A stretch of 57,676 nt of DNA from the NCBI GenBank assembly GCA_021372575.1, contig JAJFUE010000061.1, positions 1-57,676 on the forward strand, in the 5' to 3' direction. The stretch is from a bacterium (GTDB lineage Bacteria > Sumerlaeota > Sumerlaeia > MVZB01). The translations under genes and the position numbers were made by a program. The notes beneath the pieces are model-generated. The model was given only the letters and a program-made list of their open reading frames with translations. It made no database searches and was not told where the DNA came from. This document shows, piece after piece, positions 30,719 to 39,266 of this stretch (position 1 is the first letter of the stretch; each line of letters begins with the position of its first letter).

Positions 30719-30728
30719 AAACAAACCA

Positions 30729-30758
30729 GTCCTGAGTGCTGAGTCCTGAGTGCTGAGA
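30729..30758. repeat. Dispersed repeat family F, copy 1
   Basis: Direct repeats of CCTGAGTGCTGAGT (core CTGAGTCCTGAGTGCTGAG). Related copies lie at 35535-35570 and, inside a coding region, at 36431-36468. Confidence 0.85.
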
Positions 30759-30887
30759 CGAAGCGGCCCAAACGGCGCCAGCCTTGAATCCGCCTTGCTC
30801 AAATAGCATAGCAAGGATCGAAGGGGCAAAACAATTCAAAGCGAACGTGAATGAATTTGCGTTTGAGATGGGGGATACGGAAAATTG

Positions 30888-30987
30888 AATGATGAATGCG
30901 GAATGATGAATGATGAATACGGAGAGGCCCGGCACGACAGCGTGGGCACGGCCGTCATTCATCACTCATCATTCATCACTCATCATT
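30888..30987. repeat. REPIN-like inverted repeat family E, copy 1
   Basis: The left arm 30888-30922 (AATGATGAATGCGGAATGA...) and right arm 30952-30987 (CCGTCATTCATCACTCATCA...) are inverted near-complements around a 29-nt GC-rich centre, so the transcript would fold as a long hairpin. A second element with the same arms but an unrelated centre lies at 39164-39258. It sits in the divergent gap between rbfA and the UlaG-like gene. Confidence 0.8.
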
Positions 30988-32717: not shown

Positions 32718-32877
32718 CGTGCTCGTGCTCGTAATCGAAAACCGCGCAATAGGCAGTCCCTCGCTCACGCTCGGGCTACTGCATGGAACGGGCGCGAACC
32801 GGCTGCGCAACGAGGCGCGCCAGACCAATCGATGCGGATTATATTCGATTACGATTACGATTACGAGCACGAGCACG
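32718..32877. repeat. Inverted-repeat element with perfect 20-bp ends (family G) around a family A copy
   Basis: CGTGCTCGTGCTCGTAATCG (32718-32737) and its exact reverse complement (32858-32877) flank 120 bp containing a family A copy (32756-32784). It lies between the GNAT start and the stop of the TPR gene. Related G motifs occur at 44699-44718 and 50306-50324. The element has the look of a small non-autonomous palindromic unit but no target duplication was recognised. Confidence 0.85.
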
Positions 32878-32891
32878 AAAATGCACGGATT

Positions 32892-35615: not shown

Positions 35616-36629
35616 TTAATGTTTTTCTTTCCTTAATAGATCGAGCGATTGCCGCTTGAGGGCGGCGAGGCGGGAGGCGGTGGGGCCGAATTGACGCTCG
35701 AACTGATGGAACAGCCGGCGGGAGGCGGCGACTTGGGCGACCGCGCGGCCGGCGCCGGTGAGCGCCGCGATCGGGGTTTTGAGGTAACGCGGAAGCCAGT
35801 ATTGCAGCTCGCCGCGCATCGCGTAAGGGACCTCGCGGGCGATCATCGACCACGGCTGGTTGCGCAGCGGCAGGAGCCAGTGGTTGGCGAAGTAGTTGGC
35901 GCGGATCGAGCGGTTGCGCAGGCCCCCCGAGCCGCCGCCGGCGTGCCACGCCAGGGCCTGGCCTTCGATGCCGCACGCCAGCCCGGCGCGCGCGAGCCGC
36001 AGCGCCAGATCGACTTCCTCGTGATAGGCAAAGAACGCGGAAGGAAAGATGTCTTCGGGCGGGATGCTGACGGAGCGGCAGGCCTCGACACGCAGGAGCA
36101 TCGCCGCGCCGGTCACGCCCGGGACGCGGCGGCGAAGGCGGTCGCCGGGACGCGGCGTCCGGCCCATGCGCAGCTCAAACGGGAATCCGGCGCGCGGCCA
36201 CACAAGGCCGGCCGAGTAGATTGGCGCACCGGGATCGGGCGTGTCGCTCCACAGAAGCAGCCCGGAAACCAGCGCCAGCTGCGGATCCTCATCCATCCAG
36301 TCGCAAAGCCGCTCAACGTAATCGGGAGCGAGGACGACGTCCTGGTTGAGCGCCAGGTAGTATTTCGTCTTGCAACGCGCGAGCGCCTGGTTGTGCCCGG
36401 CGCAAAAGCCGAGGTTGCGCGAATTGATGACGAGTCCTGAGTCCTGAGTGCTGAGTCCTGAGTTTTGAAATTCGGCTTGGATGAGTTTAACGGTGTCGTC
36501 GGTCGAGGCGTTGTCGATCCAGATGATGTCGAGCGCTTCAGTCTGGGAAAGAAGCGATCGGACGCACGGGATCGCGGACGGGCCGGCGTTCCACGTGAGC
36601 AGGCCGACGGTGGCGCGCGGGGCGGTCAT
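35616..36629 (-). CDS. Family 2 glycosyltransferase (rhamnosyltransferase-like)
   Basis: A 337-aa GT-A enzyme: VGLLTWNAGPSAIPCVRSLL, IIWIDNASTDDTVKLI, RNLGFCAGHNQALAR, YLALNQDVVLAPDYVE (DxD-like site), GVTGAAMLLRVEACR and FAYHEEVDLALRLARAG (catalytic base EE/ED region). It resembles WbbL/rhamnosyl-type transferases that extend surface glycans. The start is at 36629, overlapping the next GT2 gene's stop by 4 bp. Between VKLIQAEF and LVINSRNLGF the protein carries QNSGLSTQDSGL, encoded by an in-frame copy of dispersed repeat F, replacing the usual short loop. The C-terminus is basic with possible membrane association near 240-280. Confidence 0.9.
   Translation of the reverse strand: MTAPRATVGLLTWNAGPSAIPCVRSLLSQTEALDIIWIDNASTDDTVKLIQAEFQNSGLSTQDSGLVINSRNLGFCAGHNQALARCKTKYYLALNQDVVLAPDYVERLCDWMDEDPQLALVSGLLLWSDTPDPGAPIYSAGLVWPRAGFPFELRMGRTPRPGDRLRRRVPGVTGAAMLLRVEACRSVSIPPEDIFPSAFFAYHEEVDLALRLARAGLACGIEGQALAWHAGGGSGGLRNRSIRANYFANHWLLPLRNQPWSMIAREVPYAMRGELQYWLPRYLKTPIAALTGAGRAVAQVAASRRLFHQFERQFGPTASRLAALKRQSLDLLRKEKH
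36431..36468. repeat. Dispersed repeat family F inside a coding region
   Basis: CGAGTCCTGAGTCCTGAGTG then CTGAGTCCTGAGTT. The reading frame of the glycosyltransferase runs straight through it, adding roughly a dozen residues (QNSGLSTQDSGL) in a surface loop. Confidence 0.9.
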
Positions 36630-39163: not shown

Positions 39164-39258
39164 AATGATGAATGCGGAATGAAGAATGATGAATAACCGC
39201 CCGCCTGCGGCTTGCGGTATTTGTCTTTTTCATCATTCATCATTCCGCATTCATCATT
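39164..39258. repeat. REPIN-like inverted repeat family E, copy 2
   Basis: The left arm 39164-39194 (AATGATGAATGCGGAATGAA...) is complementary to right arm 39231-39258 (ending CGCATTCATCATT). The 36-nt centre is unrelated to that of copy 1 (30888-30987), while the arms share ATGATGAATGCGGAATGA. Confidence 0.85.
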
Positions 39259-39266
39259 CCCTTCCA

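What the first reader, a model, noticed from the sequence alone, without database searches (positions are those of the whole stretch)
36431..36468. Dispersed repeat F exapted in frame into a glycosyltransferase
A repeat that is intergenic elsewhere (30729, 35535) lies inside the GT2 coding sequence and is read as QNSGLSTQDSGL in a loop between two core strands, leaving all catalytic motifs intact. It shows insertion of a short repeat into a functional gene and gives a clue to how these repeats move.
Basis: seen in the sequence. Interest (0 to 1): 0.6.

Follow-up and report, generated by a model that had tools for sequence, protein, structure and literature searches.

The report
Heptamer repeat read inside a glycosyltransferase
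A short DNA repeat built from a 7-base unit, normally found at the edges of genes, sits inside a sugar-transferring enzyme gene in the one orientation that can be translated and adds seven amino acids to a surface loop; the same repeat, with the same fixed ends, turns up in many unrelated bacterial phyla by a route that nobody has explained.

Summary
'Repeat F' at 36432-36463 is a tandem heptamer array, unit TGAGTSC (S = C or G), antisense to a GT2 glycosyltransferase gene (35616-36629, minus strand). It is read as QNSGLSTQDSG in the loop between helix 46-56 and strand 65-68 (AlphaFold2, mean pLDDT 92.6). Class-level homologues lack it; the net gain is 7 codons (21 nt, three units). It is not a one-off. 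I located 86 such arrays in the host genome; 9 lie inside predicted genes. For two further genes, orthologues lack the insert. Arrays share fixed ends, AGT(SCTGAGT)n with n most often 4, in this genome and in unrelated phyla (Acidobacteria, Chloroflexi, Cyanobacteria and others). They are polarised at gene edges: the AGT end abuts stop codons in sense, or start codons in antisense. This matches published heptamer repeats (GGGNATC, TAACTGA), but TGAGTSC cannot form a G-quadruplex. The sense strand has stops in every frame; the antisense strand is open in every frame and carries AGGA, a Shine-Dalgarno core. I found no target-site duplication, no reverse transcriptase hit in the genome and no REP-transposase linkage, so how the arrays move is unsolved. 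A new member of a known kind, with an unusual cross-phylum module.

The parts
36432..36463 (+). heptamer array gAGTCCTGAGTCCTGAGTGCTGAGTCCTGAGT, i.e. AGT(SCTGAGT)4, antisense to the GT2 gene
36432..36464 (-). the eleven codons QNSGLSTQDSG (residues 56-66) that occupy the loop where homologues usually have four; net +7 codons
   Evidence: alignment; structure
35616..36629 (-). GT2 glycosyltransferase gene (337 aa) that contains the array
30728..30757 (+). perfect four-unit array between genes, antisense, about 24 nt upstream of the likely rbfA start codon
35529..35563 (+). degenerate array between the GT2 gene and the downstream gene, antisense, 48 nt upstream of that gene's predicted start

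Best explanation
The feature is one copy of a dispersed heptamer-repeat module, AGT(SCTGAGT)n, that entered a GT2 gene in the lineage of this genome. It survived because it landed antisense, in frame, in a surface loop. The sense strand (TGAGTSC) has TGA in all three frames within 21 nt, so it can only end an open reading frame. The antisense strand (GSACTCA) has no stop in any frame and encodes a polar heptapeptide (STQDSGL/STQDSAL), so it can be translated when the net length change is a multiple of three; here it is +21 nt, three units. The same coding logic plausibly filters the rest of the genome: sense copies persist right after stop codons; antisense copies persist just before start codons, where they offer AGGA as a Shine-Dalgarno core; a few antisense copies persist inside genes. 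Shown: sequence, frame, orientation, absence in homologues, fixed ends, polarity. Inferred: insertion rather than ancestral presence, selection as the filter, the Shine-Dalgarno role. Unknown: the enzyme or process that copies the module.
For: Loop +7 aa against most of about 30 class-level homologues. Confident structure with the insert in an exposed helix-strand loop. Nine arrays inside predicted genes, all antisense, 8 of the 9 proteins with Pfam hits. Orthologues of an HI0933-like flavoprotein gene (45-58% identity) mostly lack its insert (+14/15 aa), and homologues of a second GT2 lack its insert (+10 to +12). Start phase AGT in 57 of 86 arrays (chi-square p about 1e-39); the same phase dominates in Acidobacteria, Terriglobia, Thermoanaerobaculia, Deltaproteobacteria, Nostoc and viral contigs. 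AGT end within 10 nt of a gene edge in 40 of 72, other end in 1 of 72; replicated in four other lineages. Of 12 antisense arrays 4-9 nt before a start codon, 11 have AGGAC next to the start. None of 60 relatives carries the 20-mer.
Against: No empty site at nucleotide level was found for this gene, and homologues with a complete loop are only about 25-33% identical overall. Net insert lengths in the other genes (+14/15, +10 to +12) are not all exact multiples of seven residues, so clean insertion is not shown. That in-gene arrays are all antisense is forced by the stop codons and is not independent evidence. GGGAATC repeats in Xanthomonas show the same polarity (PMC4692102) although, by my reading, they carry neither stops nor a Shine-Dalgarno core, so coding logic cannot be the whole reason. 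The Shine-Dalgarno count is post hoc (p about 0.02), and in the other genomes the few cases are mixed.
Confidence: 0.75

Rival explanations
1. Local slippage: the array grew in place from a chance TGAGTCC-like seed inside the GT2 gene, as an ordinary simple sequence repeat, without any movement.
For: C/G variant order is not shared between arrays beyond chance (p=0.20), as expected if arrays are not copies of one master; no target-site duplication; net gain is exactly three units; unit number varies.
Against: Slippage does not fix the ends: 57 of 86 arrays begin at AGT, and the same phase dominates in other phyla. The same unit in unrelated phyla but in none of 60 relatives is hard to get from chance seeds. 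Composite hexamer arrays (CGATTA)n(CGAGCA)m keep a fixed order.
Confidence: 0.25
2. A mobile micro-element: a preformed module of about 30 nt is inserted by a transposase or through an RNA intermediate, as proposed for small dispersed repeats of Nostoc or for REPINs.
For: Fixed ends, mode of four units, scattered copies on both strands, patchy distribution; convergent inverted pairs; identical variant order AGTCCTGAGTGGCGAGTGCTGAGTGCTGAG repeated on one viral contig; 13 Y1 transposase hits, the most among 39 class genomes.
Against: No target-site duplication, no RVT_1 hit in this genome, Y1 transposase genes not flanked by arrays, variant order in this genome looks random, and in nine Nostocaceae one array pair stays at the same place.
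Confidence: 0.4
3. Repeat-derived gene-edge signal (Shine-Dalgarno and stop cassette, or a G-quadruplex-like regulator) maintained by selection, with the GT2 copy an accident.
For: Polarity at gene edges; AGGAC next to start codons in 11 of 12 cases; orthologous position kept across nine Nostocaceae.
Against: Most genes lack arrays; a G-quadruplex is excluded for this unit (no GGG on either strand of TGAGTSC); none of 60 relatives has the 20-mer.
Confidence: 0.25

Closest known systems
GGGNATC / GGGGAYT heptamer repeats of Xanthomonas and Nostoc (Rehm et al. 2015, PMC4692102)
   Same: 7-nt unit, mode of four units, mostly intergenic, inverted convergent pairs, same polarity: antisense upstream of starts, sense next to stops
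   Different: Unit TGAGTSC has no G tracts, so the G-quadruplex explanation of four units and polarity cannot apply here; in-frame copies in conserved protein domains
TAACTGA heptamer repeats of Beggiatoaceae, Cyanobacteria and Bacteroidetes (MacGregor 2015, PMC4679880)
   Same: 7-nt unit, few copies per array, patchy cross-phylum spread with no evident mechanism, stops in all frames in one orientation and readable in the other, some copies inside genes
   Different: Other unit; its forward (stop-bearing) strand lies upstream of starts, the opposite of here; in-gene copies there mostly at protein ends, here in loops within or between domains
Rickettsia palindromic elements (reviewed in PMC10969869)
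   Same: Repeats inserted in frame into unrelated functional genes
   Different: About 150 bp palindromes against about 31 bp tandem heptamers
Small dispersed repeats and STRR heptamers of Nostoc (Elhai 2008; Mazel 1990), from memory only
   Same: Very short dispersed repeats, heptamer arrays in cyanobacteria
   Different: Not compared by sequence here; papers not held

Membership tests
Dispersed bacterial heptamer repeats (STRR-like) | tandem 7-nt unit, several copies per array, many arrays per genome | tested here: met
Dispersed bacterial heptamer repeats (STRR-like) | over-represented between genes | tested here: met
   9 of 86 inside predicted genes at 75% coding density
Dispersed bacterial heptamer repeats (STRR-like) | four units preferred; antisense upstream or sense downstream of genes | tested here: met
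   33 of 86 arrays with four units; polarity, replicated in other lineages
G-quadruplex heptamer repeats (GGGNATC) | four G tracts able to form a G-quadruplex | tested here: not met
   no run of three G on either strand of TGAGTSC (sequence)
Simple sequence repeat by slippage | arbitrary ends, no preferred phase | tested here: not met
   57 of 86 begin at AGT
MITE / transposon-derived repeat | target-site duplication | tested here: not met
   observed mean 2.12 against 2.27 permuted
REP / REPIN with RAYT | short palindrome clustered at its tyrosine transposase gene | tested here: not met
   13 Y1 loci, none flanked; nearest arrays 1.1-1.5 kb away
GT2 glycosyltransferase (host gene) | Pfam PF00535 and conserved Asp motifs | tested here: met

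The most novel reading that the evidence does not exclude
A cross-phylum class of about 30-nt tandem modules with fixed ends and fixed polarity at gene edges (TGAGTSC here, with sister families of period 6, 7 and 9 in the same genome) is written into genomes by an unidentified, reverse-transcriptase-independent process, and in this lineage it also lengthens proteins in frame.
Probability: 0.3. Interest if true: 0.8.

Novelty: new member of a known kind. Interest (0 to 1): 0.5.

Why it matters
Heptamer arrays have been reported separately in Xanthomonas, cyanobacteria and Beggiatoaceae, with their polarity and four-unit preference tied to G-quadruplexes in one case. Finding the same polarity and unit number for a unit that cannot form a quadruplex weakens that explanation. 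Fixed ends shared across phyla make the question of how such arrays arise testable with close strain pairs. In-frame copies show a route by which short repeats add loop residues to working enzymes.

Tried and rejected
Target-site duplication: none. Copies of one master element: C/G variant order no more shared than chance in this genome. Reverse transcriptase as agent: no PF00078 hit in this genome (95.6% complete, so not absolute). REP-type transposases: 13 present, but not flanked by arrays. G-quadruplex: excluded by sequence. Empty sites: a Nostoc pair at about 95-97% identity showed no heptamer-array gain or loss in about 12 kb, and one array pair is kept at the same place in nine genomes; plasmid and phage collections gave no usable relatives. 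Gene calls are from my own codon-usage predictor, not a curated annotation.

Full report
What is there. The window lies in a 4.63 Mb draft genome in 214 contigs, about 62% GC in the sampled stretches. The copy at 36432-36463 has period 7 and 4.6 copies. It lies on the plus strand, inside a minus-strand gene of 337 codons (35616-36629) that is a GT2 glycosyltransferase (PF00535, E=7e-17). Ten matches to TGAGTSCTGAGTSCTGAG with up to three mismatches occur in the window against 0.05 expected. A 20-mer of the array occurs 52 times in the genome and its reversed control never.

Effect on the protein. Against about 30 homologues from the same class, the loop after LIQAEF is 11 residues (QNSGLSTQDSG) where the others usually have four (for example FPQLRIV), a net gain of seven codons, 21 nt, three heptamer units. 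AlphaFold2 on an alignment of 23 sequences gives mean pLDDT 92.6; the insert is the loop between helix 46-56 and strand 65-68, with somewhat lower confidence (block mean 83 for residues 61-70). The nearly invariant GT2 positions are kept. The two same-family orthologues (58% and 50% identity) are cut by contig ends before this loop, and their N-terminal halves were not found, so the closest test of precision is not available.

It is not a single case. I located 86 arrays in fetched stretches of this genome. Nine lie inside predicted genes: the window GT2, a second GT2, a membrane protein without a Pfam hit, DsbD, an HI0933-like flavoprotein, a PMT-type membrane protein, a GT1 fusion, a spermidine-synthase-like protein and a DUF2298 protein. 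All nine are antisense, which the code forces: the sense strand has TGA in every frame, the antisense strand has no stop in any. For the HI0933-like gene most of 17 orthologues at 45-58% identity lack the insert (usually +14 or +15 residues; two, including the same-family G002, have other long insertions there). For the second GT2, homologues lack +10 to +12 in most cases, including one at 54%. In four other array-rich lineages none of 150 arrays lies inside a predicted gene, against 9 of 86 here (Fisher p about 9e-5).

Fixed ends and polarity. 57 of 86 arrays begin at AGT, where 12 would be expected, and most end at GAG, GAGT or GAGTS, so the module is AGT(SCTGAGT)n, most often with n=4 (33 of 86). 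The same start phase dominates in Acidobacteria, Terriglobia, Thermoanaerobaculia, Deltaproteobacteria and Nostoc, is the largest class in a Chloroflexi genome, and dominates in viral contigs. The AGT end is within 10 nt of a stop codon of a same-strand gene in 25 of 32 cases, or of a start codon of an opposite-strand gene in 15 of 40; the other end is within 10 nt of a gene edge in 1 of 72. The pattern repeats in four other lineages (combined p about 3e-17). Of twelve antisense arrays 4-9 nt before a start codon, eleven place AGGAC, a Shine-Dalgarno core, next to it; this is post hoc (p about 0.02), and the few cases in other genomes are mixed.

Distribution. None of 60 other genomes, including two of the same family and 36 more of the order or class, has the 20-mer. 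In nine Nostocaceae one convergent array pair is kept at the same place while its units vary, and two close Nostoc genomes show no heptamer-array gain or loss in about 12 kb. So arrays are not hypermobile there.

How it may spread. There is no target-site duplication, no reverse transcriptase hit in this genome, and no array cluster at its 13 Y1 transposase genes. Variant order in this genome is no more shared than chance, which argues against copying from one master, while the fixed ends argue against plain slippage. I leave the agent open and give the mobile-module reading 0.4 and local slippage 0.25.

Comparison with the known. Rehm et al. (PMC4692102) describe GGGNATC heptamers with a four-unit mode, convergent inverted pairs and the same polarity, and suggest G-quadruplexes; TGAGTSC has no run of three G, so a quadruplex cannot be the reason here. 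MacGregor (PMC4679880) describes TAACTGA heptamers with patchy cross-phylum spread and notes that one orientation has stops in all frames while the other can be translated. Rickettsia palindromic elements (PMC10969869) are the precedent for in-frame repeat insertion. The feature is therefore a new member of a known kind. What is added is the unit, the shared fixed ends, the non-quadruplex polarity, and in-frame copies within conserved proteins.

Limits. Counts come from stretches selected by the repeat; gene edges are from a simple codon-usage predictor; the genome is a draft; the best homologues of the window gene with a complete loop are distant.

Noticed in passing
window 32846-32878; L160, L174, L178, L198, L206, L214 and others: A hexamer composite (CGATTA)n(CGAGCA)mCGA with a fixed order of its two blocks; 28 copies in the sampled stretches of this genome. 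A fixed two-block order is hard to get from slippage.
   Followed up: partly
window 30886-30918 with 30955-30985; 39164-39194 with 39229-39259: ATGATGA-type heptamer arrays in inverted pairs (potential hairpins). In the sampled loci the 5' end of this family lay within 12 nt of a same-strand stop codon in 5 of 5 cases.
   Followed up: partly
sampled 478 kb of the genome: Besides TGAGTSC, tandem arrays of period 6 (31), 7 (31) and 9 (19) are common, periods 5, 10, 13 and 14 absent, codon-shuffled control 0.
   Followed up: partly
L180:2286-4454: One membrane-protein gene carries two different heptamer inserts, the TGAGTSC array and a GATTGAC array read as SSIVNRQSSI.
   Followed up: no
IMGVR_UViG_3300005578_000008 (L363, L370, L372, L376, L382): A 40.8 kb viral-collection contig holds dozens of these arrays, some with identical variant order, which suggests copying. 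Whether the contig is truly viral was not checked.
   Followed up: no
host genome G000: 13 Y1_Tnp (PF01797) hits, the most of 39 class genomes, and no RVT_1 hit.
   Followed up: partly
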